From assembly GCF_013304385.1 (NCBI RefSeq), contig NZ_JAAITU010000012.1, positions 24,769 through 88,768 of the forward strand: a stretch of DNA of 64,000 nt, in the 5' to 3' direction. Source of the stretch: Blautia glucerasea. Lineage in GTDB: Bacteria; Bacillota; Clostridia; Lachnospirales; Lachnospiraceae. This document shows positions 2,883 through 49,401 of this stretch, piece after piece. The position numbers were made by a program, and so were the translations under genes. The notes beneath the pieces are model-generated. The model was not told the origin of the DNA, searched no databases, and saw only the letters and a list, made by a program, of their open reading frames with translations. The first letter of the stretch is position 1, and every line of letters begins with the position of its first letter.

Positions 2883-3086
2883 GTGACCAAGAAGAAAGCC
2901 TCGATGTCACAGGTGCTGGCAGATATAAAGCCTTACATAACGAAAAAGTTCATGGCGGCTCCCTGTGTTAAGGAGCAAGACATTCAGGTTATTTGTCAAA
3001 TTCTCCTGCCCAGATACAAGTATTACGGACATGAGCATACATATGGCTACGGATTCTGCGGAAATGGAGGATGCAGTGGGAAGTGA
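2883..3086 (+). CDS. small protein of unknown function at the island edge
   Basis: A 67-residue product starting at GTG 2883, chosen because AAAGGGGGG lies about 6 bases upstream. The first half is basic and helical (TKKKASMSQVLADIKPYITKK). The last 20 residues are rich in Gly, Tyr, His and Cys. I do not recognise it. It begins 56 bases after the ATPase stop, so it could be a third component or a cargo gene of the island. The codon pattern is AT-rich like the two genes before it. The C-terminal tail may come from a frameshift, because the frame of the next gene is open alongside it. Confidence 0.4.
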   Translation: MTKKKASMSQVLADIKPYITKKFMAAPCVKEQDIQVICQILLPRYKYYGHEHTYGYGFCGNGGCSGK

Positions 3087-3114
3087 AGTCTGGACTAGGC
3101 TTCAGGGGGCAAAA

Positions 3115-3381
3115 ATGGATATGGATATAAATGCGATTGTAGAGAGAATTCAAGAGGCAAGTGAGCTGTCATATAATTACTATAAGCCGCTTGTAGATAG
3201 CATTATTGCAGAGAAGGCATCTGAAAAGGAAGTGGAATATCTGCTGGATTACATGCTTGATGCATGTCATGATGAAAGAATGCTGAATCTGTTCAAGAAG
3301 GTTTGTAGACGATATTATAATCTTTATCCCGAAATGATTGTATCTGCGATACTGGCTTATAAGGAATGGTATGAGGATTGA
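3115..3381 (+). CDS. small acidic helical protein, unknown function
   Basis: An 88-residue product; start ATG 3115 has AGGGGG 5-6 bases upstream. The frame is open back to about 2965, overlapping the preceding small gene. The sequence is almost wholly helical and acidic at the C-terminus (YPEMIVSAILAYKEWYED), with no signal peptide or membrane segment. Similar small helical proteins are common as cargo of integrative elements, but I cannot name the family. Its place behind a nuclease/ATPase pair makes a small accessory subunit possible. The function is unknown. Confidence 0.45.
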   Translation: MDMDINAIVERIQEASELSYNYYKPLVDSIIAEKASEKEVEYLLDYMLDACHDERMLNLFKKVCRRYYNLYPEMIVSAILAYKEWYED

Positions 3382-5972: not shown

Positions 5973-7181
5973 ATGGCAAAAATTCAGATGAACACACCCC
6001 TTGTAGAGATGGACGGAGATGAGATGACCCGTATTCTCTGGAAGCTTATTAAGGATGAACTTCTGAATCCTTTTATTGACTTGAAGACTGAATATTATGA
6101 TCTTGGCCTGGAGCACAGAAATGACACAGATGACCAGGTTACTGTAGATGCAGCAGAGGCAACCAAGAAATACGGAGTTGCTGTAAAATGTGCCACCATT
6201 ACCCCAAATAAGGCAAGAATGGACGAGTATGACCTGAAGAAAATGTACAAAAGCCCTAACGGCACTATTCGTGCCATCCTGGATGGTACCGTATTCCGTG
6301 CACCTATTGTTGTAAATGGAATTGAGCCTTGTGTACGCAACTGGAAAAAGCCGATCACCATTGCACGTCATGCATATGGGGATGTATACAAGAATACAGA
6401 GATGAGCATTGAGAAACCGGGTGACGCATATCTTGTATTTGAAGGTACAGATGGAGAGACTAAAAAAGAACTGATCCATCACTTTGACAATCCAGGTGTG
6501 ATCCAGGGAATGCACAACATTGAGGAGTCCATTGCAAGCTTTGCAAGATGCTGCTTTAACTATGCACTGGATACAAAGCAGGATCTGTGGTTTGGAGGCA
6601 AGGATACAATCTCCAAGATTTATGACGGGAAATTCAAAGAGATTTTTGCAACGATTTATGAAGAAGAATTTAAAGAAAAATTCCAGGAAGCAGGGATCAC
6701 TTATTTCTACAGCCTGATCGATGATATTGTAGCCCGTGTGATGAAAGCAGAGGGCGGTTTTATCTGGGCCTGCAAGAACTATGACGGAGATGTGATGAGT
6801 GACATGGTATCTTCTGCATTTGGCTCTCTTGCAATGATGACTTCTGTACTTGTTTCCCCTCACGGCTACTATGAGTATGAGGCTGCTCATGGTACGGTGC
6901 AGAGACATTACTACAGACATCTGGAAGGAAAAGAAACATCCACCAATTCTGTGGCAACTATTTTTGCATGGACAGGTGCTCTTCGTAAAAGAGGAGAGAT
7001 GGATGGGATCCAGGAACTGCAGGATTTTGCAGACAAGCTGGACAAGGCTACACTTTCAACTATCGAAAGCGGAAAGATGACAAAGGACCTGGCTTTGATC
7101 ACTTCCTTGAAGGATGTAACAGTACTGAACAGCAAAGAATTTATCCTTGCCATCCGTGAGAATCTGGAAAAGCTTCTCTGA
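5973..7181 (+). CDS. icd: NADP-dependent isocitrate dehydrogenase
   Basis: A 402-residue protein of the eukaryote-like homodimeric NADP-IDH class, beginning MAKIQMNTPLVEMDGDEMTR and containing SPNGTIRAILDGTVFR (substrate-binding Ser/Arg loop), DDIVARVMK (metal-binding Asp) and AAHGTVQRHY. It decarboxylates isocitrate to 2-oxoglutarate with NADPH production in the cytoplasm. Full length. It has GAGGAGG upstream of its ATG and sits directly behind the citrate synthase-type gene, so the pair supplies carbon for glutamate. No aconitase gene lies in the window. Confidence 0.93.
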   Translation: MAKIQMNTPLVEMDGDEMTRILWKLIKDELLNPFIDLKTEYYDLGLEHRNDTDDQVTVDAAEATKKYGVAVKCATITPNKARMDEYDLKKMYKSPNGTIRAILDGTVFRAPIVVNGIEPCVRNWKKPITIARHAYGDVYKNTEMSIEKPGDAYLVFEGTDGETKKELIHHFDNPGVIQGMHNIEESIASFARCCFNYALDTKQDLWFGGKDTISKIYDGKFKEIFATIYEEEFKEKFQEAGITYFYSLIDDIVARVMKAEGGFIWACKNYDGDVMSDMVSSAFGSLAMMTSVLVSPHGYYEYEAAHGTVQRHYYRHLEGKETSTNSVATIFAWTGALRKRGEMDGIQELQDFADKLDKATLSTIESGKMTKDLALITSLKDVTVLNSKEFILAIRENLEKLL

Positions 7182-7204
7182 TAAAAAAATATCATCATAA
7201 CAAA

Positions 7205-7234
7205 GGAGGAGCCGGCCATCAGGCCAGCTCCTCC
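7205..7234. terminator. hairpin terminator between convergent icd and ABC-F genes
   Basis: GGAGGAGC (7205-7212) pairs with GCTCCTCC (7227-7234), and GGCC with GGCC inside, around an ATCA loop. One arm is part of the last codons of the ABC-F gene. The leftward flank is T-rich on the minus strand, so it probably serves both genes. Confidence 0.6.
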
Positions 7235-9126
7235 CACTTTTCGTATAATTCCTCTAATTCTGCTGCAATGGCAGCTTTTTCTTTACTTAATCTGGTGCAT
7301 TCTGCTACGTTGGTACAAACTTCAGGAAGAATCATGGTTTCATCAATTTCCTGATCACGGGCTTCCAGTTCTTCAATCCTTTTTTCGGTTTTCTTCAGTT
7401 CGTTTTCCCTTTTACGTTCTTTTGCCTGCTGTTCCTTTTGCTGCTGCCAGGAAAGCTTGTTATCTGAAACCTGGACGGCTTCTTCTTCCTGGGTTGTTAA
7501 AGGAGCATATTTGGCAGTAAGCTCTTCTTTCTTTTCCAGATAATAATCATAGTCCCCAATATAATTCACAATGGCCTGATTGGTCAGATCCATGATCCGG
7601 GTGGCTGTCTGATTGATAAAATAACGGTCATGAGATACGTAAAGGACAGTACCTGTATAACTGTTCAGTGCTTCCTCCAGGATTTCCTTGGAAGCAATAT
7701 CCAGATGATTGGTAGGCTCGTCCAGGATCAGAAAATTGGCTTCTGAGAGCATCAGCTTTGCAAGGGAAACACGGCCTCTCTCTCCACCGGAAAGAGAGGA
7801 AATCACCTTGAATACATCATCCCCTGTGAACAGAAAGGCTGCCAGCATATTGCGGATCTGTGTTTCTGTAAGAGTAGGATAGGTATCGGAGATTTCCTGG
7901 AATACTGTTTTTTCCATATGGAGTACATGATGTTCCTGGTCATAGTAACCGATCTGTACCTTGGAACCAAGGGTAAACTTGCCGGAATCGGCAGGAATCA
8001 CCTGGTTCAGGATCTTAAGTAATGTGGTTTTTCCTGTTCCGTTATTCCCAATAAGGGCTACTCGTTCACCACGCTTGATCTCAAAAGAAATATTCTGGAA
8101 AAGGGTCTGTCCCGGAAAAGTTTTGGAAAGCTCTTCCACAGTCAGCACGTCATTGCCGCTGATGAAGCGAGGCTCCAGGGTGAGACGCATCTGATCGTTT
8201 ATTTCAGCAGGTTTATCCAGACGCTGCATTTTATCCAGCATTTTTTCACGGCTTTCCGCACGGCGGATGGACTTTTCACGGTTAAAGGACTTCAGCTTTG
8301 CAATCACTGCTTCCTGATGCTTAATTTCTCGTTGCTGGTTCAGATAGGCCTTATACTGAGCATCACGAAGCTGGGCTTTTTTCAAGGCATAGGCTGAGTA
8401 ATTGCCACTGTACATCCGTACATATCCGGCTTCGATCTCTACCACTTTTGTTACAACTTTATCAAGAAAGTATCTGTCATGAGATACGATCAGTACAGCT
8501 CCAGGGTAGGTGAGCAGATAATTTTCCAGCCAAGCGATGCTTTCCATATCCAGGTGGTTGGTAGGCTCATCAAGAAGCAGGATATCCGGCTGGGACAGAA
8601 GAAGCTTGCCAAGAGCGACCCTTGTTTTCTGGCCTCCGGAAAGGGTTTCTATCTGCTTGGTGAAATCCTCTTCTGAAAAGCCCAGGCCTTTCAGTACGCC
8701 TGCAATCTGGCTTTTGTAGGCATAGCCATTTTCCAGCTCAAACTGGTGGGTCAGGCGGGAATAGGTCTGCATCAGTTTTTCTAACTGATCTCCCTGGGAA
8801 TTTTTCATTTCCTGTTCCAGAGTACGAATTCTGTTTTCCATATCTATGATGTGCTGTTTGGTGGAGCTAAGCTCATCATAAATGGTTTGATGACCGTGAA
8901 TATCCTGATACTGAGCCAGATAGCCGATCTTTTTGTCCCTGGAGATCACTACAGAACCGCTATCTGCAGAAAGCTCGTTCATAATGATCCGCAGCAGGGT
9001 GGTTTTACCTGCACCATTGTTGCCGATCAGTGCTGCTTTCTCTTTTTCTTCAATATGAAAACATGCATCTTTGATAATCTCTTCTTCACCAAATGCTTTA
9101 CATATGTTCTGACATGATAAAATCAT
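7219..9126 (-). CDS. ABC-F family ATP-binding protein (ribosome-associated)
   Basis: A 635-residue duplicated ABC ATPase with no membrane segments. The first Walker A is GNNGAGKT (35-42), signature LSGGQ (162-166) and Walker B LLLDEP (183-188). The linker is Lys/Arg-rich (about 250-310). The second Walker A is GNNGTGKT (360-367) with LSGGERGR further on, and the tail is a charged coiled coil. ABC-F proteins bind the ribosomal E site and relieve stalled translation; some give antibiotic resistance. The C-terminal coiled coil fits the YfmR/Uup-type housekeeping groups better than resistance types (inference). ATG at 9124-9126 has GGAGG upstream; a longer frame to 9156 lacks such a site. Confidence 0.9.
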   Translation of the reverse strand: MILSCQNICKAFGEEEIIKDACFHIEEKEKAALIGNNGAGKTTLLRIIMNELSADSGSVVISRDKKIGYLAQYQDIHGHQTIYDELSSTKQHIIDMENRIRTLEQEMKNSQGDQLEKLMQTYSRLTHQFELENGYAYKSQIAGVLKGLGFSEEDFTKQIETLSGGQKTRVALGKLLLSQPDILLLDEPTNHLDMESIAWLENYLLTYPGAVLIVSHDRYFLDKVVTKVVEIEAGYVRMYSGNYSAYALKKAQLRDAQYKAYLNQQREIKHQEAVIAKLKSFNREKSIRRAESREKMLDKMQRLDKPAEINDQMRLTLEPRFISGNDVLTVEELSKTFPGQTLFQNISFEIKRGERVALIGNNGTGKTTLLKILNQVIPADSGKFTLGSKVQIGYYDQEHHVLHMEKTVFQEISDTYPTLTETQIRNMLAAFLFTGDDVFKVISSLSGGERGRVSLAKLMLSEANFLILDEPTNHLDIASKEILEEALNSYTGTVLYVSHDRYFINQTATRIMDLTNQAIVNYIGDYDYYLEKKEELTAKYAPLTTQEEEAVQVSDNKLSWQQQKEQQAKERKRENELKKTEKRIEELEARDQEIDETMILPEVCTNVAECTRLSKEKAAIAAELEELYEKWEELA

Positions 9127-40966: not shown

Positions 40967-40995
40967 TTGATTTCAAAAAATACTTTTGCTATAAT
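40967..40995 (+). promoter_or_regulatory. promoter of the cobalamin riboswitch operon
   Basis: TTGATT (40967-40972), 17 bases, TATAAT (40990-40995). Transcription would begin near 41003, just before the riboswitch. Confidence 0.7.
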
Positions 40996-41014
40996 ACAGG
41001 AAATGAATAAAGAC

Positions 41015-41225
41015 CGTTTACAGTGTCAGCCAGGAGGCAACGATTCCGGCTGTTAAAGGGAATCAGGTGGAAGTCCTGAACGATCCGGTCACTGTGAGCA
41101 GGGAGGATACTGCAGGGACCATTGAGAAGAAGCCTGGATCCGATAGGACTTATGGAAGCCGTCTCTTCTTGAGAAGGAGCAGATATCTGTTGATCTGTGA
41201 GCCAGGAAACCTGCTGTGAATGCTG
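41015..41225 (+). ncRNA. cobalamin (B12) riboswitch
   Basis: The conserved core GGAATCAGGTGGAAGTCC runs from 41059, followed by CGATCCGGTCACTGTGA (to about 41097), and the B12 box GAGCCAGGAAACCTGC lies near 41199-41214. Spacing and order match the cobalamin aptamer class. It normally turns expression off when adenosylcobalamin or related corrinoids are plentiful. It stands alone between a promoter and a terminator hairpin, ahead of the surface protein operon. Confidence 0.93.
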
Positions 41226-41328
41226 AAGATGGAAGCTTCCGACGAAAGCGATTCATTGCTATTTCTTGTATTGTTTTATTGCACATATGTTTTTTGGCTA
41301 TGCATATAATGATATGAGCAATTGTGAT

Positions 41329-41361
41329 GCCTGTTTCCAAGCCGGAAGCAGGCTTCTTTTT
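41329..41361 (+). terminator. expression-platform terminator of the B12 riboswitch
   Basis: GCCTGTTTCC (41329-41338) pairs with GGAAGCAGGC (41344-41353) around a 5-base loop and is followed by TTCTTTTTTT. It lies about 110 bases after the B12 box and 60 bases before the first gene, so corrinoid binding probably promotes termination here. Confidence 0.8.
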
Positions 41362-41420
41362 TGTACAGCAGTACATGTCTTCATTCAAATTGATTGGAAA
41401 TAACAGGAGGATAAAAGATC

Positions 41421-43208
41421 ATGAAAAAACGAAAAATCATTCTTGCAATGCTTCTTTGCGCTGCAATGACAACAGGGAGTGTGCTTCCTGCATTTGGGGA
41501 AGATCTTGCAGCAGAAGTGGATGTACAGGATGTAACAGAGGATGAGGCTTTTGATGAGTCTGAGGAAGCAGATTTTGCTGAGTTTACAGACCAGGAGGAA
41601 GTGACCCCTGATGTATTAGATGGTGCATTTACCGCTTATCCGGAGGAATCCGCACCGGTAGCTGAAGATGCAGAGAATCCGGGAACCGTTGCAGCACAGG
41701 GATATTATACCTTTGATTTTTCTGATGCAGCTGCACCGGGAGTTACCTGTACTGGCACAATGTTCCGGGTAGTAGCAGCTACTTTATATAGTGACAAAGA
41801 TGGAGTAATGACAGCTACCATTACTCTTTCCGGCACTGGCAGGGATAAGCTTTATTTTGGAACAGCAGAGGCGGCAGAGGCAGATACTGCTAATCAGATG
41901 ACTTATTCATCTGTAGTAAAGGATAGTAATGGTAAAGAACAGTATGTATTCGGACCGTTTGCAGTTGCCAAACTGGATAAGGTTATCAATGTGGCTGCAC
42001 ATACTGTCAAGGGAAATAAATGGAAAGATTACACGATCACCTTCAACTCCTCCAAGCTTCTTGCAGCTGCTACAGATCCTGTAGATAACAGCACAGCACT
42101 TCCGGATGGTACATATACACCGGAGAATTTCACAGCTGCCGGCGGTACAGGTAAAGTGACAATTACCTGTCCACAGGTTATTGTTGAAAATGGCAAGGCA
42201 TTTGCAGATGTTACATTCAGCAGCAAGAAATATGTTTATGTAAAGGCAAATAATCAGTTATTTAACGGTACAGTGAATACTTCCGGCGTTACATACAGGA
42301 TCCCGGTTGACCTGAATGAAGATGTGAAGATCCTTGCACTGACTACAGGTATGAGCATGGCACATGAGATCGCCTATACTCTTCATGTAACATTGAATGA
42401 GACACCGGCACCTACTGCTACACCGGCACCTACTGCTACACCAACACCTACTGAGACGCCGGCTCCCACACCTGCAGCAGTTGTAGCAACTTCATTAAAG
42501 GTTTCTGTTTCCAAACTTACCTTAAAGGCAGGAGCCTCCAGGACAGTCAGTGCCATTGCAGCACCTGCAAATACCACAGACAAGGTGGTATACACTTCCC
42601 AGAATCCTTCCGTTGCTACAGTAAACGATGCTGGTAAGATCACTGCAAAAGCAGCAGGTAAGACCAAGATTACTGTAAAAGCAGGATCAAAGGAAAAGAC
42701 CATTGCTGTAACAGTATCAAAAAAAGCAGTAAAAGTAAAATCCCTTAAGATGAAAAAGGCAGCCCTTACCATGAATAAGGGAACTCAGACTTATGTTTCT
42801 TATAAAGTGAATCCAACAGGTGCAACCACAACCCTGAAATGGAAATCTTCCAATAAGAATGTGGCAGCAGTAGACCAGACAGGTAAGATCGTTGCAAAGA
42901 AAGCCGGCAAAGCTACGATTACAGTAACAGCAAACGGCAAGAAGGCAACCGTGAAGGTTTCTGTTGTGGATCCATGCACCAGTGTAAAGGTACAGAGCGC
43001 TCTTACCTTAAAGGCTGGCAAGTCTGCCAAATTAAAAGTAACAACCACTCCCAAAACAACTGGACAGAAAGCAGCATTTAAGTCAAGCAACAAGAAAGTG
43101 GCAACCGTAGATTCCAAGGGAAAAGTAAAAGCCCTGAAAAAAGGAACTGCTAAGATCACTGTTACTGTAGGCAAGCAGAAAGCAACCTGCACAGTAAAAG
43201 TAAAATAA
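41421..43208 (+). CDS. secreted B12-regulated surface protein with NEAT-like domains and three Big_2 domains
   Basis: A 595-residue exported protein. Signal peptide MKKRKIILAMLLCAAMTTGS with cleavage near VLPAFG. An acidic stretch (27-90) precedes domain A (about 94-213: MFRVVAATLYSDKDGVMTAT, DYTITFNSS) and domain B (about 229-325: GGTGKVTITCPQVIVENGKA, TTGMSMAHEIAYTLHV). Both are beta-sandwich-like and recall NEAT heme-binding domains in layout. A PTATPAPT linker leads to three basic Big_2 Ig-like domains (357-595). No LPXTG or anchor. First gene behind the B12 riboswitch, so a corrinoid-capturing role on the cell surface is inferred. RBS AGGAGG precedes ATG 41421. Confidence 0.75.
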   Translation: MKKRKIILAMLLCAAMTTGSVLPAFGEDLAAEVDVQDVTEDEAFDESEEADFAEFTDQEEVTPDVLDGAFTAYPEESAPVAEDAENPGTVAAQGYYTFDFSDAAAPGVTCTGTMFRVVAATLYSDKDGVMTATITLSGTGRDKLYFGTAEAAEADTANQMTYSSVVKDSNGKEQYVFGPFAVAKLDKVINVAAHTVKGNKWKDYTITFNSSKLLAAATDPVDNSTALPDGTYTPENFTAAGGTGKVTITCPQVIVENGKAFADVTFSSKKYVYVKANNQLFNGTVNTSGVTYRIPVDLNEDVKILALTTGMSMAHEIAYTLHVTLNETPAPTATPAPTATPTPTETPAPTPAAVVATSLKVSVSKLTLKAGASRTVSAIAAPANTTDKVVYTSQNPSVATVNDAGKITAKAAGKTKITVKAGSKEKTIAVTVSKKAVKVKSLKMKKAALTMNKGTQTYVSYKVNPTGATTTLKWKSSNKNVAAVDQTGKIVAKKAGKATITVTANGKKATVKVSVVDPCTSVKVQSALTLKAGKSAKLKVTTTPKTTGQKAAFKSSNKKVATVDSKGKVKALKKGTAKITVTVGKQKATCTVKVK

Positions 43209-43338
43209 ATGTAAATGTTCCGTATTTTTACAGTTACAAATAAACAATAGTAGATACAGATAAAGAAAACTGTCCTGTGAAGCATTGTGTGGCACAATAT
43301 TTTGCAGGGCAGATTCCTGTTTAACAGAGGAGATTCAT

Positions 43339-46047
43339 ATGAAACGTAATTCAACAAGATTTCTTGCACTTTTTTTAACCGCTGCCATGTCCGTCACTCC
43401 AGCTGTGGCAGCTTTTGGTGAGAATCAGGAGAACAGTGATCAGATCCCTGCCATTTCCCTGGCTCCCCAGCCATCAGAAATGCCGGAGATATCTGTTTCA
43501 CCTACAGTTGTGCCAGAAAAAGAAGCACTAAATAATGCAGAAACCGATAAAAAGGAAGCTGTTAATGAGTCTAAAGACTCTGAAGGAGAAGATCCGCAAA
43601 AGAAAGATTCCCAGGAAAAGGAATCAGAAAAGAAGGATACTGAAAAGAAGGATACTGAAAAGAAAGATACTGAAAAGAAGGATACTGAAAAGAAAGATAC
43701 TGAAAAGAAAGATACAGAATCTAAAGACTCAGAAAAGAAAGATCCTGAAAAGGAAGATACAGAGAAAAAAGATCCGGAAGAAAAAGACCCGGAGGAAAAA
43801 GATCCGGAAGAGGAAGATATTTTCAAGGATAAAGAGTTCATCCCAAGTATTGCTGATTATACAGCGGCTGAAGACAAGATCACCCTGGTGGTGAAAGGCA
43901 ATGACAGTGTGTTTGACAGACTGTATGTAGGAAAAAAAGAAGATGCAAATAAATCAAAGGTAATACCAGGAACTGCTGATACAGATGGAACCTATCGCTT
44001 TACCTTTGATGTTCCTGCAGAAATGAAAAATCAGGTTCTTTATGTGGTGCCGGGAAACAGTAATAACGGCGGAGAGATCAAATGGTATACAGCCAAAGAC
44101 TGTACCATCACAGTCCCGGATGTGGTGCCGGCTCCCACCAGTATACCACAGCCCACAGATAGTCCCCAGCCTACTGCCATACCGGAACCGACCGCTATCC
44201 CAGAGCCGACCCAGATACCTTCTCCAACCCCAACTCAGACACCAGCTCCGGCTATTCCAAATGGAGTATATAAGATCAATGTTACCTCCAGCGCATTTAT
44301 GTTCCGTGTGGTAGACTGTCAGCTTACCTCCAAAGATGGTGTGATGACAGCAATCCTTACACTTAGCGGCGTAGGCTATGATTATCTGTTTATGGGCACA
44401 AAAGAAGAAGCAGATCAGGCTGACCGCTCCACCTGGATTCCTTTTACTCCAAATGCAGCAGGCAAATACACATATCCGGTACCTGTTTCTGCCCTGGATA
44501 CAGGCATTGCAGTAGCCGGACATTCCAAGAGCCATAATCTGTGGTATGACCGTATCCTTACTTTTAATTCCGGTACTTTGGAAAAGATCGCAGATCTGGA
44601 TGTTCAGGAGGATCCATCCAATCCAGAACAGGAAAATAAGGATAATAACAGTGATCCGAACAAAAAGAAGGATGACAAAAAGAAAAACAATAAAAAGGAT
44701 AAAAATAAAAAAGACAAAAAAGATAAAAACAAGAAAAACAATAAGGTACAAACACCGGGAAAGGATGTGGACAAGGAATCTAAATACAAATCCGATCTTA
44801 GCGGCGGTACATCTAAGGTGGACAGCTCTACAGGGCTGAAGGACGGTTCCTACGTACCGGATAAGTTCTCCTGGTCCGGTGGAACCGGTAAGGTGCAGAT
44901 CAGCTGCAGCAAGGTTTCCATTACAGGCGGTCAGGCATATGCGACCATTACCTTTAGCAGTGATGCATATGGCTATGTGAAAGCTAACGGAAATATGTAC
45001 TATCCAGATCACAGCGGCGGCGGTTCTACATTTGTGATTCCTGTAGCCTTAAATAAAAATAATTCTATCATTGGTATGACCACCAGAATGTCTGTGCCTC
45101 ATGAGATCCAATATAGTATATTTGTATATTTGAATGGTGCAGACAACAAAAGCGACAAAGACAAAGAAAATCCATCTTCTTCTGACAGTATGGTTTCCAC
45201 TGGTAATAAAAAGCTGGACGACAAAGCACCGGAGATCACCGGTCTTGAGTACAAGGATGAAACTACTTTGGAACATGCAAAACACCTGAAAGTGTATCAT
45301 TATGAAAATGACATTACACTTCTTGAGGTGGATATGACCACTGATACTGCCCGTACAAAAGAATCTGTTCAAGCAGAAGGCGAAGCAAATACAGAAGAAA
45401 CAGCAGCAGGCAATGAAGAAACTGCAGCAGTATCTGAGGACGAAGAAACAGCAGCTGTGACTTCTGATGAGGAACAATCCATGGCAGCAGCTCCTGAAGA
45501 GGAGAGCGGTTCTTCTGCTCCTGCAGAGTCTACAGGGGATAAGATCGAACAGCTTTATATGGGAAATGTGATCAAATATCTGATCGTTCCGGAAGATGCA
45601 GATGTTCCGGCAGGTCTTGATAAAGATGTGATCCTGATCCGGAAGCCTGTAGAGAAAACTTATGTGGACTCTGCAAATGCAGCGGAGGCCATGGATAAGC
45701 TGGGATTGACAGACAAGATTTCCATGATAGGATCAGACCTTACCGATCTTCCTGAAGCTCTGTCATCTGCTGTGGAAGCAGGAACTTTGGAAAGCACAGG
45801 GACTTATACAGACCTGGATTATAAGACGATGCTGAAAAGCCAGTGTACCCTTGCTATTCTGCCATCCGATATCCTTCCTAAGACAGAAGAGGATCTGGAT
45901 GCAAAAACAGAAGAACTAAGGAGCACTGCCCAGAGATTTGCACTTCTTGAGATCCCGTTCATCGTTGACCGATCTTCAGATGAAGAAAATGATGAGGCAG
46001 TGGCAGAATGGGAAGAAGTTTACAAGACAATCTTTGATGTGAAATAA
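43339..46047 (+). CDS. secreted B12-regulated surface protein: NEAT-like domains fused to the N-lobe of a BtuF-like binding protein
   Basis: A 902-residue exported protein from ATG 43339 (GAGGAG upstream; the longer frame from 43285 lacks one). After the signal peptide come a Lys/Asp/Glu-rich stretch with EKKDT repeats (about 78-165), a divergent domain (about 170-260), a PTAIPEPT-type linker, a domain A copy (FMFRVVDCQLTSKDGVMTAI), a poly-Lys linker, and a domain B copy (GGTGKVQISCSKVSI, TTRMSVPHEIQYSIFVYL). Residues ~627-902 align with the first half of the next gene's binding protein (KAPEITGLEY against EAPQIPGLTY; VILIRKPVEKTYV against ITVIQKPVSRIYL), interrupted by an acidic insert. The second lobe is missing. 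Probable corrinoid relay component (inference). Confidence 0.75.
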   Translation: MKRNSTRFLALFLTAAMSVTPAVAAFGENQENSDQIPAISLAPQPSEMPEISVSPTVVPEKEALNNAETDKKEAVNESKDSEGEDPQKKDSQEKESEKKDTEKKDTEKKDTEKKDTEKKDTEKKDTESKDSEKKDPEKEDTEKKDPEEKDPEEKDPEEEDIFKDKEFIPSIADYTAAEDKITLVVKGNDSVFDRLYVGKKEDANKSKVIPGTADTDGTYRFTFDVPAEMKNQVLYVVPGNSNNGGEIKWYTAKDCTITVPDVVPAPTSIPQPTDSPQPTAIPEPTAIPEPTQIPSPTPTQTPAPAIPNGVYKINVTSSAFMFRVVDCQLTSKDGVMTAILTLSGVGYDYLFMGTKEEADQADRSTWIPFTPNAAGKYTYPVPVSALDTGIAVAGHSKSHNLWYDRILTFNSGTLEKIADLDVQEDPSNPEQENKDNNSDPNKKKDDKKKNNKKDKNKKDKKDKNKKNNKVQTPGKDVDKESKYKSDLSGGTSKVDSSTGLKDGSYVPDKFSWSGGTGKVQISCSKVSITGGQAYATITFSSDAYGYVKANGNMYYPDHSGGGSTFVIPVALNKNNSIIGMTTRMSVPHEIQYSIFVYLNGADNKSDKDKENPSSSDSMVSTGNKKLDDKAPEITGLEYKDETTLEHAKHLKVYHYENDITLLEVDMTTDTARTKESVQAEGEANTEETAAGNEETAAVSEDEETAAVTSDEEQSMAAAPEEESGSSAPAESTGDKIEQLYMGNVIKYLIVPEDADVPAGLDKDVILIRKPVEKTYVDSANAAEAMDKLGLTDKISMIGSDLTDLPEALSSAVEAGTLESTGTYTDLDYKTMLKSQCTLAILPSDILPKTEEDLDAKTEELRSTAQRFALLEIPFIVDRSSDEENDEAVAEWEEVYKTIFDVK
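43627..43716 (+). repeat. 15-bp in-frame tandem repeats encoding EKKDT
   Basis: Six units of GAAAAGAARGATACW, differing by single bases, then decayed units. They encode the charged wall-spanning stretch near the N-terminus of the second surface protein. Copy number could vary between strains without breaking the frame. Confidence 0.9.
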
Positions 46048-46070
46048 CAACAGAAAGGAGAAACAGATCC

Positions 46071-47258
46071 ATGTTTAATAAAAAAATGAAACAGAGGATA
46101 TGTGCTGTCTTGCTTACTGCTGTGATGGCATTTACTACAGCAGGCATCCCTGTAATGGCAGAAGAAATTGCTTCAGACACAGCAGCGGATGAGGAGTTTA
46201 AGGATGAGGCACCTCAGATCCCTGGACTTACCTATGAGTCAGAAATGGAACTGAAATATGCGCAGTGTTTTCATGTGTTTTATTACAATGACGGATATGC
46301 GCTGATCGATATTAAAGATGACGGTCAGTTCCTTGTGGTTCCGGAAGGCAAAGAAGCTCCGGCAGATATGGACAAAAGCATTACTGTGATCCAGAAGCCG
46401 GTTTCCAGGATCTACCTGGCTGCAACTTCAGCAATGGCTCTGTTTAATGCCATTGACGGGCTGGACAGTATCCGCCTTTCAGGCACACAGGCCTCCGGCT
46501 GGTACGTAGATGAAGCAGCTCAGGCTATGGAAGATGGAAAGATCCTTTTTGCAGGAAAATATGATGAACCGGATTATGAGCTTCTGATCAATGAGGATTG
46601 TGATCTTGCTATTGAATCTACCATGATCCTTCATTCTCCAAAGGTGGCTGAGATGATCAAAGAACTGGGGATCCCGGTTATGATCGATCACTCTAGTTAT
46701 GAAACACATCCGCTGGGAAGAACGGAATGGGTGAAGCTTTACAGCGTGCTGCTTGGTAAAGAGAAGGAAGCAGCGGCATTCTTTGATGATCAGGCAAAGG
46801 TGATCGAGGATTTAAGCGGGTTTACCAACACAGAGAAAACCGTTGCTTATTTCTATATCAATACGGATGGATCCGCAGTAGTTCGTACCAGTGATGACTA
46901 TATTCCCAAGATGATCGAGATTGCAGGGGGAAGATATATTTTTCCTGATCTGAAAAATACAGAAGGCACAGGATCTTCTGTCCGCCTTACCATGGAGGAA
47001 TTCTATAATCAGGCGGTGAATGCAGACTACCTTATTTATAATGCATCCATTGACAGCCCTATTACAAGCATTGACGATCTTCTTGCAAAAAGCGATCTGT
47101 TTGCAGATTTCAAGGCAGTAAAAGATGGTAATGTGTGGTGTACAGGCAAACAGCTGTATCAGGCTACAGACATTGTAGGAGAACTGATCAAGGATGTGCA
47201 TCTGATGCTGACAGACGGAGATGAGAAGGATATGACCTTCCTTACAAGGGTGAGCTGA
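46071..47258 (+). CDS. BtuF-like (periplasmic-binding fold) ABC transporter substrate-binding protein
   Basis: A 395-residue exported protein of the Fe3+/B12 binding class. Signal peptide MFNKKMKQRICAVLLTAVMA, cleavage near PVMAEE. Two lobes: residues ~45-230 (SRIYLAATSAMALFNAIDG) and ~240-390 (TVAYFYINTDGSAVVRTSDDY, IPKMIEIAGGRYIF), joined by a long helix as in BtuF/FhuD. There is no lipobox cysteine at the cleavage site, unusual for a Gram-positive binding protein. It sits under a B12 riboswitch and overlaps the permease start by one base, so corrinoid is the likely cargo; heme or siderophore cannot be excluded. Confidence 0.83.
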   Translation: MFNKKMKQRICAVLLTAVMAFTTAGIPVMAEEIASDTAADEEFKDEAPQIPGLTYESEMELKYAQCFHVFYYNDGYALIDIKDDGQFLVVPEGKEAPADMDKSITVIQKPVSRIYLAATSAMALFNAIDGLDSIRLSGTQASGWYVDEAAQAMEDGKILFAGKYDEPDYELLINEDCDLAIESTMILHSPKVAEMIKELGIPVMIDHSSYETHPLGRTEWVKLYSVLLGKEKEAAAFFDDQAKVIEDLSGFTNTEKTVAYFYINTDGSAVVRTSDDYIPKMIEIAGGRYIFPDLKNTEGTGSSVRLTMEEFYNQAVNADYLIYNASIDSPITSIDDLLAKSDLFADFKAVKDGNVWCTGKQLYQATDIVGELIKDVHLMLTDGDEKDMTFLTRVS

Positions 47259-48313
47259 TGGAGAGATCAACAGAAAATACAAGCTTTCATATGGAAAATT
47301 TCCGGAGACGATCCAGATATGCTGTGGTTTTTATAGGCCTGATCTTTGCATTTTGCCTGATCACTGTACTGAATATTAACACAGGAAGTGTACACATATC
47401 AGTCCCGGATATTTTCAAAATCATTTTTACCAAAAGCGGTGATGCTACAGCATACAATATTATTTGGAAAATCCGTTTTCCCAGGATCCTGATGGCAGCC
47501 ATCCTGGGAGGAGGGCTTTCTCTTTCCGGATTTTTATTACAGACCTTTTTTTCAAATCCTATTGCAGGTCCGTTTGTGCTTGGGATTTCCTCCGGAGCGA
47601 AGATGATGGTTGCTTTGACTATGATCGTATTCCTTCAAAGATTCCATGTGGTTTCTTCCTATACACTGGTTGTGGCGGCTTTTATTGGTTCGCTTATATC
47701 GGTGGCTTTTATCCTTCTGTTTTCCAGAAGGCTGCACAGCATGGCCACCCTTCTGGTAGCCGGAATCATGATCGGATATATCTGTTCTGCCATCACAGAT
47801 TTTGTGATCACTTTTGCGGAGGATTCGGACATTGTAAATCTTCATGGATGGTCCCAGGGCAGTTTTTCCGGAATGAGCTGGAGCAATGTGCAGGTTTCTG
47901 CCATTATCATAGGGATTACCTTTTTGATCCTGTTTTTCATGGCAAAGCCTATTGGTGCATTCCAGCTTGGAGAAGCTTATGCCCAGAGCATGGGTGTAAA
48001 TATTAAAGTATTTAAGATCGCCCTGATCCTTTTATCCAGTATCCTTTCCGGATGTGTTACTGCTTTTGCCGGACCGATCTCATTTGTGGGAATCGCAGTG
48101 CCTCATCTGGTAAAGCTGGCATTGAAAACGGCCAGGCCGCTTGTGGTGATTCCAGGCGTGTTCCTGGGAGGCGCTGTGTTCTGTATGATGTGTGACCTGA
48201 TCGCCAGAATGGCCTTTTCACCACTGGAACTGAATATCAGTACAGTAACATCTATTTTCGGTGCCCCGGTAGTAATCGTAATGATGCTCCGCAAGAAAGG
48301 AAGGCAGGCCTGA
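47258..48313 (+). CDS. BtuC/FecCD-type ABC transporter permease
   Basis: A 351-residue integral membrane protein with about 9-10 hydrophobic helices. FecCD hallmarks: RFPRILMAAILGGGLSLSGFLLQTFFSNPIAGPFVLGISSGA near 65-110 and GPISFVGIAVPHLVK near 270. It forms the translocation channel for corrinoid or iron complexes with the ATPase encoded next. TGATG and GCCTGATGG overlaps at both ends couple translation with its neighbours. Confidence 0.92.
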   Translation: MERSTENTSFHMENFRRRSRYAVVFIGLIFAFCLITVLNINTGSVHISVPDIFKIIFTKSGDATAYNIIWKIRFPRILMAAILGGGLSLSGFLLQTFFSNPIAGPFVLGISSGAKMMVALTMIVFLQRFHVVSSYTLVVAAFIGSLISVAFILLFSRRLHSMATLLVAGIMIGYICSAITDFVITFAEDSDIVNLHGWSQGSFSGMSWSNVQVSAIIIGITFLILFFMAKPIGAFQLGEAYAQSMGVNIKVFKIALILLSSILSGCVTAFAGPISFVGIAVPHLVKLALKTARPLVVIPGVFLGGAVFCMMCDLIARMAFSPLELNISTVTSIFGAPVVIVMMLRKKGRQA

Positions 48314-49401
48314 TGGATTATTATTTTCAGATGAAGGATCTGGCAGTAGGTTATCACAAACAGCCCCTGATCCATGATATTAATATTAACATTGAAAAAG
48401 GTGAGATCGTTACTCTCATCGGGCCTAACGGATCTGGTAAATCTACTATTTTGAAAAGTATTACCAGGCAGCTGGAACTGATCGGCGGGAGAGTCTATAT
48501 TGCCTCCAGGGATCTGCAGGGATTATCTTATAAGACCTTGTCTACAGAAATGGCAGTGGTACTTACTGAAAGGATCCGTCCGGAACTGATGACCTGTCAT
48601 GATATTGTTGCTACAGGGCGTTATCCTTATACAGGAAGACTTGGCGTGCTTTCAAGAGAAGATGAAGACAAAGTGGATCAGGCGATGAAGGCTGTCCATG
48701 CAGTGGAGCTAGGCGGCAGGGATTTTAATGCTATCAGTGACGGTCAGAGACAAAGAGTGTTGCTTGCAAGGGCAATTTGTCAGGAACCGGATATGATCAT
48801 TCTGGATGAGCCTACCTCATTTCTGGATATCCGTCATAAGCTGGATCTTTTATCCATTCTTCGTTCTATGGCAAAGGAAAAAGGGATCACAGTGGTTATG
48901 TCTCTTCATGAGATCGATCTTGCCCAGAAAATTGCAGATAAGATCATCTGTGTAAAGGGAGAGCAGATTTCCCATTACGGGGTTCCGGAGGAGATTTTTA
49001 AAGAAGAGATCATCAGGGATTTGTATGAGATTAACAATGGCTTTTATGATCCTGTTTTTGGAAGTATTGAACTTCCAAGACCGGAAGGGGAGCCAAAGGT
49101 GTTTGTGATTTCTGGGGCAGGAAGCGGGATTCCGGTTTACCGTTCCCTTCAAAAAGAGGGGATACCATTTGCAGCAGGCATCCTTTATACCAATGATATT
49201 GATTATCGATTAGCCAAAGAACTGGCCGCACAAACAGTTACAGAGCAGCCTTTTTCTGACATATCAAAGGAAACCTATGAGCAGGCACTGGCTCTAATGA
49301 AGAAATGTCAGCGTGTGATCGTTACAGATGTGCCGGAAGGAACCTGTAACCATCGCCTGTTTGACTTGATCAAAGAAGCAAGAAGACTGGGGATGGCTTA
49401 A
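48313..49401 (+). CDS. BtuD/FecE-type ABC ATPase with a Rossmann-like C-terminal extension
   Basis: A 362-residue ATPase. Walker A GPNGSGKST (near 37-45), a signature variant ISDGQRQRVLLARAI, Walker B MIILDEPTSFLD, and H-loop SLHE. The ABC domain ends near residue 250. The remaining ~110 residues (EPKVFVISGAGSGIPVYRSL, RVIVTDVPEG) resemble a small nucleotide-binding or regulatory domain of the kind found on some clostridial cobalamin ATPases. Powers the transporter from the cytoplasmic side. Confidence 0.9.
   Translation: MDYYFQMKDLAVGYHKQPLIHDININIEKGEIVTLIGPNGSGKSTILKSITRQLELIGGRVYIASRDLQGLSYKTLSTEMAVVLTERIRPELMTCHDIVATGRYPYTGRLGVLSREDEDKVDQAMKAVHAVELGGRDFNAISDGQRQRVLLARAICQEPDMIILDEPTSFLDIRHKLDLLSILRSMAKEKGITVVMSLHEIDLAQKIADKIICVKGEQISHYGVPEEIFKEEIIRDLYEINNGFYDPVFGSIELPRPEGEPKVFVISGAGSGIPVYRSLQKEGIPFAAGILYTNDIDYRLAKELAAQTVTEQPFSDISKETYEQALALMKKCQRVIVTDVPEGTCNHRLFDLIKEARRLGMA

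What the first reader, a model, noticed from the sequence alone, without database searches (positions are those of the whole stretch)
40967..49401. B12-riboswitch operon encoding an Isd-like cell-surface corrinoid capture relay
A clear cobalamin riboswitch with its own promoter and terminator controls two large secreted proteins, a binding protein, a permease and an ATPase, with tight or overlapping gene junctions. The surface proteins share two beta-sandwich domain types (A and B) and lack sortase motifs. Corrinoid uptake in Gram-positive gut anaerobes is usually described only at the level of BtuFCD; surface receptors such as BtuG/BtuH are known from Bacteroides. The layout here is like the Isd heme system (NEAT proteins, binding protein, ABC transporter) but under corrinoid control, so it may be an undescribed wall-level B12 acquisition system. 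The riboswitch and gene order are seen directly; the corrinoid-binding role of domains A and B is inferred.
Basis: partly seen in the sequence, partly recalled or inferred. Interest (0 to 1): 0.8.

Follow-up and report, generated by a model that had tools for sequence, protein, structure and literature searches.

The report
NEAT surface relay feeding B12 synthesis
Relatives of the gut bacterium Blautia that carry genes for making vitamin B12 often also carry, mostly just behind B12-sensing RNA switches, genes for predicted surface proteins that are predicted to fold like heme-catching proteins and that likely gather cobalt, possibly held in a heme-like ring, for building the vitamin.

The parts
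40967..40995 (+). promoter-like hexamers TTGATT-17-TATAAT
   Evidence: consensus scan, 10 of 12
41004..41232 (+). cobalamin riboswitch aptamer RF00174
   Evidence: 84.8 bits, E 1.8e-19
41329..41353 (+). terminator-like hairpin followed by a T run
   Evidence: -19.2 kcal/mol, z -4.6
41421..43208 (+). ORF1, predicted secreted surface protein (A, B, 3x Big_2), 595 aa
   Evidence: signal peptide judged by eye
41694..42062 (+). ORF1 domain A (predicted NEAT fold by homology to the modelled ORF2 A)
42090..42416 (+). ORF1 domain B (predicted NEAT fold by homology to the modelled ORF2 B; HEIAY motif)
43339..46047 (+). ORF2, predicted secreted surface protein (A-like, A, B, C-terminal half binding protein), 902 aa
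44251..44589 (+). [not shown]
44830..45138 (+). [not shown]
45208..46047 (+). ORF2 C-terminal truncated copy of the binding protein
   Evidence: 28% identity, E 7e-16; an A/B protein with a binding-protein-like part recurs in 60 of 64 named loci
46071..47258 (+). class III substrate-binding protein (Peripla_BP_2); no lipobox seen here
   Evidence: 4.7e-41; lipobox-like pattern in 42 of 53 relatives
47258..48313 (+). FecCD-family permease
   Evidence: 7.6e-78
48313..49401 (+). ABC ATPase with a C-terminal extension of about 115 aa
   Evidence: 3.2e-29; NCBIfam corrinoid-ATPase model aligned to residue 342, below its cut-off

Best explanation
An operon headed by a cobalamin-riboswitch match encodes two predicted-secreted proteins with predicted NEAT folds plus an ABC importer, and it likely gathers cobalt at the cell surface, perhaps as a cobalt-tetrapyrrole, for the cell's own B12 synthesis rather than taking up finished B12. 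Shown by sequence: riboswitch, gene order, recurrence of the module in many genera, and its ties to cbiD and CbiK. Predicted: secretion, NEAT folds, and repression of the operon when B12 is plentiful. Inferred mechanism: when B12 runs low the operon is switched on; a secreted CbiK-type chelatase, encoded here at a second riboswitch locus on contig C21 and next to or fused with A/B in many relatives, loads cobalt into a tetrapyrrole such as sirohydrochlorin outside the membrane; A and B domains pass the product along to the binding protein, perhaps helped by the half-copy in ORF2; the FecCD permease and ATPase bring it in, where the cbi enzymes finish the corrin ring. Weaker form of the same idea: the carrier is not a tetrapyrrole and the module only concentrates Co(II), as reported for CbtJKL.
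For: Riboswitch link: 53 of 70 domain B places downstream, same strand, within 10 kb of a listed RF00174, about 0.19 expected; five more after local scans. In 64 named loci a B12-box lies within 3 kb upstream of an A/B gene in 39 of the 48 that are not truncated. Synthesis link: A in 54 of 150 genomes, all 54 with CbiD (90 of 150), p 7.5e-17; B in 56, 55 of them with CbiD; CbiD within 20 kb of B in 18 of 55, same strand in all 18, about 0.9 expected; cbi operons headed by CbiK-A/B-SBP-FecCD-ATPase in five loci read (L132-L136); ATPase-CbiD fusion in L133. Cobalt link: among 90 CbiD genomes, CbiM within 5 kb downstream of a listed riboswitch in 0 of 55 with B and 20 of 35 without, p 6.4e-11. 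Chelatase link: 47 of the 51 A/B genomes that have a CbiK have one within 5 kb of A/B; in 32 of 55 every CbiK found is of that kind; in the window's genome the one CbiK found has a signal-peptide-like start, and the CbiX model found nothing there. That CbiK matches solved FetB (3.3e-38) and CbiK 1qgo (2.2e-37), with H145, E175 and H207 of 1qgo aligned to identical residues. Fold. Precedents: PMC7689651 passages (CbtJKL), PMC13402209 passages (FetB).
Against: No ligand or transport data. The 150 genomes share ancestry, so the Fisher values overstate independence. Only 150 riboswitch places were listed, so counts of riboswitch-linked genes are for listed places. Four A/B genomes also have a short CbiM (G019, G020, G047, G104), 14 of 55, the window's own genome among them, have a long CbiM not linked to a listed riboswitch, and 12 CbiD genomes have neither A/B nor a short or riboswitch-linked CbiM. 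Four A/B genomes show no CbiK (G002, G031, G077, G121). In L125 a CbiK without signal peptide stands beside the secreted-type one, so the secreted copy need not be the pathway enzyme. The CbiX search was not exhaustive: at its threshold it missed even the window genome's own CbiK, which matches CbiX in a direct scan. CysG/Met8-type chelatases were not searched. A tetrapyrrole exporter is needed: an ABC-2 pair was beside A/B in only 4 of 131 sequences searched, 92 of them 6 kb or longer. The permease scores best with BtuC and the ATPase second-best with a corrinoid ATPase, both below cut-off. B12 makers can also salvage corrinoids (recalled).
Confidence: 0.5

Rival explanations
1. Corrinoid capture relay: A and B bind cobamides or incomplete corrinoids at the surface and hand them to a BtuFCD-like importer in bacteria that also make B12.
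For: Cobalamin riboswitch; transporter family shared with BtuFCD (PMC2667541 passages); permease best, though below cut-off, with BtuC, and ATPase aligned over most of its length to a corrinoid ATPase model; NEAT fold suits a flat tetrapyrrole.
Against: In the 150 genomes found almost only with CbiD (55 of 56 for B, 54 of 54 for A), the reverse of what a scavenging system of B12 auxotrophs would show; no overlap with listed riboswitch-linked CbiM; often beside a chelatase; heads cbi operons in loci read; ATPase fused once to CbiD, a ring-building enzyme. DUF4430 genes, recalled as transcobalamin-like, are enriched in CbiD-negative genomes (49 of 78), and 24 of 125 places sit behind listed riboswitches.
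Confidence: 0.25
2. Plain Co(II) acquisition like CbtJKL: A/B and the CbiK-like protein act as cobalt-binding surface proteins, with no tetrapyrrole cycle.
For: CbtJKL is a riboswitch-controlled ABC importer first taken for a cobalamin transporter and then reported to carry Co(II) (PMC7689651 passages); no overlap with riboswitch-linked CbiM.
Against: NEAT and CbiK are both tetrapyrrole-handling folds (recalled), and class III binding proteins usually take chelates (recalled), so a bare ion would be a poor fit.
Confidence: 0.22
3. Heme or iron uptake of the ordinary Isd kind that happens to sit behind a cobalamin riboswitch.
For: Predicted NEAT fold; the secreted-type CbiK resembles the heme-binding protein FetB; the binding protein's only NCBIfam hit is IsdE, far below cut-off.
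Against: NEAT domains above the Pfam cut-off in the same genomes are elsewhere, 0 of 17 within 10 kb of a listed riboswitch, against 53 of 70 for B on the same list; the YxxxY heme motif is not kept.
Confidence: 0.03

Closest known systems
Isd heme system (NEAT surface proteins, IsdE binding protein, IsdF-type permease)
   Same: predicted NEAT folds on predicted surface proteins, followed by a class III binding protein and FecCD-family permease
   Different: cobalamin riboswitch instead of iron control (recalled), no LPXTG-like motif, HxxxY instead of the heme YxxxY in domain B, almost confined to cbiD genomes, linked to CbiK and cbi genes
CbtJKL cobalt ABC transporter of Sinorhizobium meliloti (PMC7689651 passages)
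   Same: BtuF-like ABC importer under an adenosylcobalamin riboswitch, first taken for a cobalamin transporter
   Different: no NEAT-type proteins or secreted chelatase mentioned in the passages read
CbiMNQO cobalt ECF transporter
   Same: riboswitch-linked in 20 CbiD genomes here; appears to be replaced by the A/B module
   Different: unrelated transporter type
FetB of Porphyromonas gingivalis (PMC13402209 passages; PDB 9b86 is named FetB and assumed to be the same protein)
   Same: CbiK-family protein described as a porphyrin chelatase, its products accumulating at the cell surface
   Different: inserts manganese into protoporphyrin; no NEAT or B12-riboswitch partner mentioned in the passages read
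BtuG/BtuH and DUF4465 B12-binding proteins of Bacteroides (search listings only)
   Same: surface capture of B12 in gut bacteria
   Different: different folds (recalled), Gram-negative, finished cobamides

Membership tests
NEAT domain superfamily | NEAT immunoglobulin-like fold | tested here: met
   [not shown]
NEAT domain superfamily | PF05031 match above the curated cut-off | tested here: not met
   None for the window domains; weak hits at E 0.01 in 3 of 72 B and 12 of 72 A members; below-cut-off genome hits at several A and B places
heme-binding NEAT | YxxxY heme-ligand motif in the last strands (recalled) | tested here: not met
   B has HxxxY, His in 68 of 72 and Tyr in 72 of 72; A has Trp-Tyr (69 and 59 of 72) without the second Tyr in the window copies. 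The equivalence is by sequence; residue superposition was not seen.
Isd system | sortase-anchored NEAT proteins | tested here: not met
   no LPXTG-like motif in ORF1 or ORF2
BtuFCD | equivalog-level match of binding protein, permease and ATPase | tested here: not met
   BtuC 212.7 bits against cut-off 334; corrinoid ATPase 202.1 against 537; binding protein only IsdE 20.6 against 298.65
CbtJKL-like cobalt importer | class III ABC importer behind a cobalamin riboswitch | tested here: met
CbtJKL-like cobalt importer | Co(II) transport shown by mutant phenotype | not testable with these tools
   needs a deletion strain
CbiK cobaltochelatase (companion protein on C21) | CbiK domain with the metal-site residues | tested here: met
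   PF06180 2.1e-74; H145, E175, H207 of 1qgo aligned to identical residues (residue roles recalled)

The most novel reading that the evidence does not exclude
These B12 producers insert cobalt outside the cell membrane: a tetrapyrrole, most simply sirohydrochlorin, is exported as a home-made cobaltophore, a surface CbiK loads it with cobalt, NEAT-type domains with a histidine in place of the heme tyrosine catch the cobalt-tetrapyrrole, and a riboswitch-controlled ABC importer brings it back as a ready intermediate for corrin synthesis, replacing the CbiMNQO cobalt pump.
Probability: 0.28. Interest if true: 0.93.

Novelty: new variant of a known kind. Interest (0 to 1): 0.8.

Why it matters
If right, NEAT domains, known for heme (recalled), also serve the cobalt branch of tetrapyrrole metabolism; a family of gut commensals acquires cobalt for B12 by a route that none of the listings or passages I saw describes; and many riboswitch-linked BtuFCD-like annotations in these bacteria would be wrong, as happened with CbtJKL. 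It makes a concrete question testable: where in the cell is cobalt inserted in B12 producers whose only CbiK found carries a predicted signal peptide?

Tried and rejected
Heme or iron uptake: rejected because B follows listed cobalamin riboswitches (53 of 70) and true NEAT domains do not (0 of 17). Chance riboswitch proximity: about 0.19 expected against 53 of 70. Corrinoid salvage by auxotrophs: rejected by near-confinement to CbiD genomes. CbiM in general as the replaced pump: long CbiM proteins showed no exclusion (14 of 55 against 7 of 35, p 0.62); only the short (4 of 55 against 21 of 35) or riboswitch-linked kind did. CbiX as the missing cytosolic chelatase: every listed hit but one (G069, E 3.0e-4) fell on a CbiK place, but the search was not exhaustive. 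PDB sequence search with the domain profiles gave weak NEAT hits for B (E 0.36, behind an unrelated fiber protein at 0.11) and no NEAT for A; with an A/B lipoprotein it gave nothing. An exporter as a general partner: found beside A/B in only 4 of 131 sequences, so kept as weak. No paper held the terms NEAT domain, cobalamin and riboswitch together; the listings (each capped at 8 to 25 papers) showed no title or abstract on this system. Most subscription papers are not in the library. PMC7689651, PMC2667541 and PMC13402209 were read as passages only; all others as listings.

Rows dropped before counts: A1 left out three distant B rows and A2 nine A rows of those; A4 and A5 used 70 of 87 B and 70 of 169 A segments (the lists were thinned for redundancy and cut at 70 by score, so lower-scoring copies are missing), plus two window segments each. 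The CbiM comparison used the 58 strong places and left out nine weak ones (E 3e-7 or worse), four of them in A/B genomes. The NEAT control used the 17 places above cut-off, on listed riboswitches only, without the local scans that B had; the like-for-like figure for B is therefore 53 of 70. One search used 50 of 64 loci (those left out were cut at the contig edge or unannotated); its contig numbers could not be matched to the loci, so only RF00174 in 49 of 49 genomes was taken. One search scanned 15 of the 20 loci (L063-L067 left out). The tallies rest on lists that I copied by hand from the outputs.
Full report
What is there. The window (contig C32 of the host genome) holds a cobalamin riboswitch at 41004-41232 with a promoter-like site just upstream and a stable terminator-like hairpin between it and the first gene, then five collinear genes. 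ORF1 and ORF2 start with typical signal-peptide-like sequences (judged by eye; no predictor was run) and share domains A and B. ORF1 ends in three Big_2 domains. ORF2 ends in a half copy of the next gene's binding protein. The binding protein, FecCD permease and ATPase follow with tight junctions. The nearest named protein is from a Blautia glucerasea MAG (98% over the query region).

Recurrence at riboswitches. A search of 150 genomes of the same family found domain B in 56 genomes at 70 places and RF00174 in 130 genomes (only 150 of its places were listed). Of the 70 places, 53 lie downstream on the same strand within 10 kb of a listed riboswitch, where 0.19 would be expected; local Rfam scans added five, making 58. 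Of the other 12 places, ten showed no gathering-level hit in the stretch fetched (several at contig ends), one is divergent from a riboswitch, and one was not scanned. As a control, the 17 Pfam-level NEAT places in the same genomes have none within 10 kb of a listed riboswitch; they had no local scans, so the like-for-like comparison is 0 of 17 against 53 of 70. In 64 named loci a B-bearing gene is followed on the same strand by binding protein, FecCD and ATPase in 39; many of the other 25 are cut by contig ends, two have another gene order (L117, L119), and some lack recognised parts. An A/B protein with a binding-protein-like part is in 60 of 64. A B12-box lies within 3 kb upstream of an A/B gene in 39 of the 48 loci not truncated; in four more (L109, L114, L119, L125) a box sits near the start of the gene cluster. 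The pattern found 9 of 10 known riboswitches and gave 60 boxes against 3 to 7 in shuffled sequence. The host genome has six RF00174 matches. Besides this operon, one lies before a 1381-aa protein with B and two A domains (L011) and one before a CbiK protein followed by a small A protein (L013).

The turn away from corrinoid capture. Domain A occurs in 54 genomes and all 54 have CbiD; domain B in 56, of which 55 have CbiD (the exception, G063, is a weak B hit); CbiD is in 90 of 150. In 18 of 55 genomes CbiD lies within 20 kb of domain B, in all 18 on the same strand. Read in full, five loci (L132-L136) show CbiK, A/B, binding protein, FecCD and ATPase and then cbi genes as one run (cbi names beyond CbiD are from reading the sequences); all five genomes have a listed riboswitch upstream of the module. 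In L133 the ATPase and CbiD are one 650-aa protein (PF00005 4.4e-32, PF01888 3.5e-85). Among the 90 CbiD genomes, CbiM close behind a listed riboswitch occurs in 20, none of them with A/B (0 of 55 against 20 of 35); short CbiM proteins in 4 of 55 against 21 of 35. Long CbiM proteins show no such exclusion (14 of 55, the window's genome included, against 7 of 35). The A/B module thus tends to stand where the riboswitch-linked cobalt pump otherwise stands. All genomes come from one family, so these tests are not phylogenetically independent.

The chelatase. 47 of the 51 A/B genomes with any CbiK have one within 5 kb of A/B, and in 32 of 55 every CbiK found is of that kind (nearness was counted, secretion was checked by eye only in fetched loci). 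In the window's own genome the only CbiK found is the C21 protein with a signal-peptide-like start, and the CbiX model found nothing, although a cbi cluster with CbiD is present. That CbiX search is not exhaustive, since it missed this CbiK as well, which matches CbiX in a direct scan. The protein aligns to three PDB chelatase-family proteins, FetB, CbiK (1qgo) and 2xvx, with the residues equivalent to H145, E175 and H207 of 1qgo kept (numbering worked out from the alignment, roles recalled). FetB is described as a chelatase that makes manganese-protoporphyrin, with porphyrins accumulating on the outer-membrane surface (PMC13402209 passages), so metal insertion outside the cytoplasm by this fold may have a precedent. 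P0064 fuses CbiK with A and B. L125 has a box, a secreted-type CbiK, a precorrin-methylase-like gene, an ABC-2 pair, a CbiK without signal peptide, an A/B protein, an A-B-binding-protein fusion, FecCD and ATPase in one direction.

Mechanism and its limits. The evidence joins four things: B12 repression (inferred from the riboswitch), corrin synthesis, cobaltochelatase and a NEAT-type relay with an importer. Cobalt supply for synthesis explains all four; corrinoid salvage explains the first and last only. That cobalt travels in a tetrapyrrole is the further step suggested by NEAT plus CbiK. It needs an exporter, for which only four loci offer a candidate, and it is weakened by genomes with a second CbiK lying apart from A/B and by four A/B genomes with none. 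CbtJKL shows that a BtuFCD-like, riboswitch-controlled importer can carry Co(II) and be mistaken for a cobalamin transporter (PMC7689651 passages). PMC2667541 states that BtuFCD is hard to tell from related systems (passages).

Verdict. The proposed corrinoid cargo is probably wrong, and a cobalt or cobalt-tetrapyrrole supply for de novo B12 synthesis is the better reading, at about even confidence.

Noticed in passing
L017:1047-6257 (+), host contig C142: A 1736-aa predicted surface protein with DUF4430 (4.6e-14, recalled as transcobalamin-like) and a weak prenyltransferase-toroid match (0.0079). By eye it follows a leader with a terminator-like hairpin; Rfam gave no match above a cut-off on that strand. 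Possibly a bacterial transcobalamin-like B12 binder.
   Followed up: partly
same-family genomes: DUF4430 is enriched in CbiD-negative genomes (49 of 78) and 24 of 125 places sit behind listed cobalamin riboswitches: a candidate corrinoid-capture family in B12 auxotrophs.
   Followed up: partly
L012:7421-7625 (-): Cobalamin riboswitch whose next long frame on that strand reads, by eye, as a BspA-like leucine-rich-repeat protein (6416-7300), an unusual partner.
   Followed up: no
L139 (host contig C157): Another long frame (1491 aa, running off at least one end of a 4.7-kb contig) with a domain A copy at 3019-3357.
   Followed up: no
P0063: Acetitomaculum ruminis protein joining domains B and A with an FMN-binding domain, which might reduce the bound metal.
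   Followed up: no
P0065, P0067: Distant B-like domains in large proteins without the HxxxY motif; P0065 ends in a membrane-anchor-like tail.
   Followed up: no
window:46071-47258: The binding protein here lacks, by eye, the lipobox-like pattern found in 42 of 53 relatives, and so do Blautia copies L089, L093 and L131; how it is held at the membrane is unclear.
   Followed up: partly
L055, L057, L061, L125: The same ABC-2 exporter pair stands beside A/B genes in four loci; in L055 a tetrapyrrole-methylase gene is next to it (Pfam) and in L125 a similar one by eye.
   Followed up: partly
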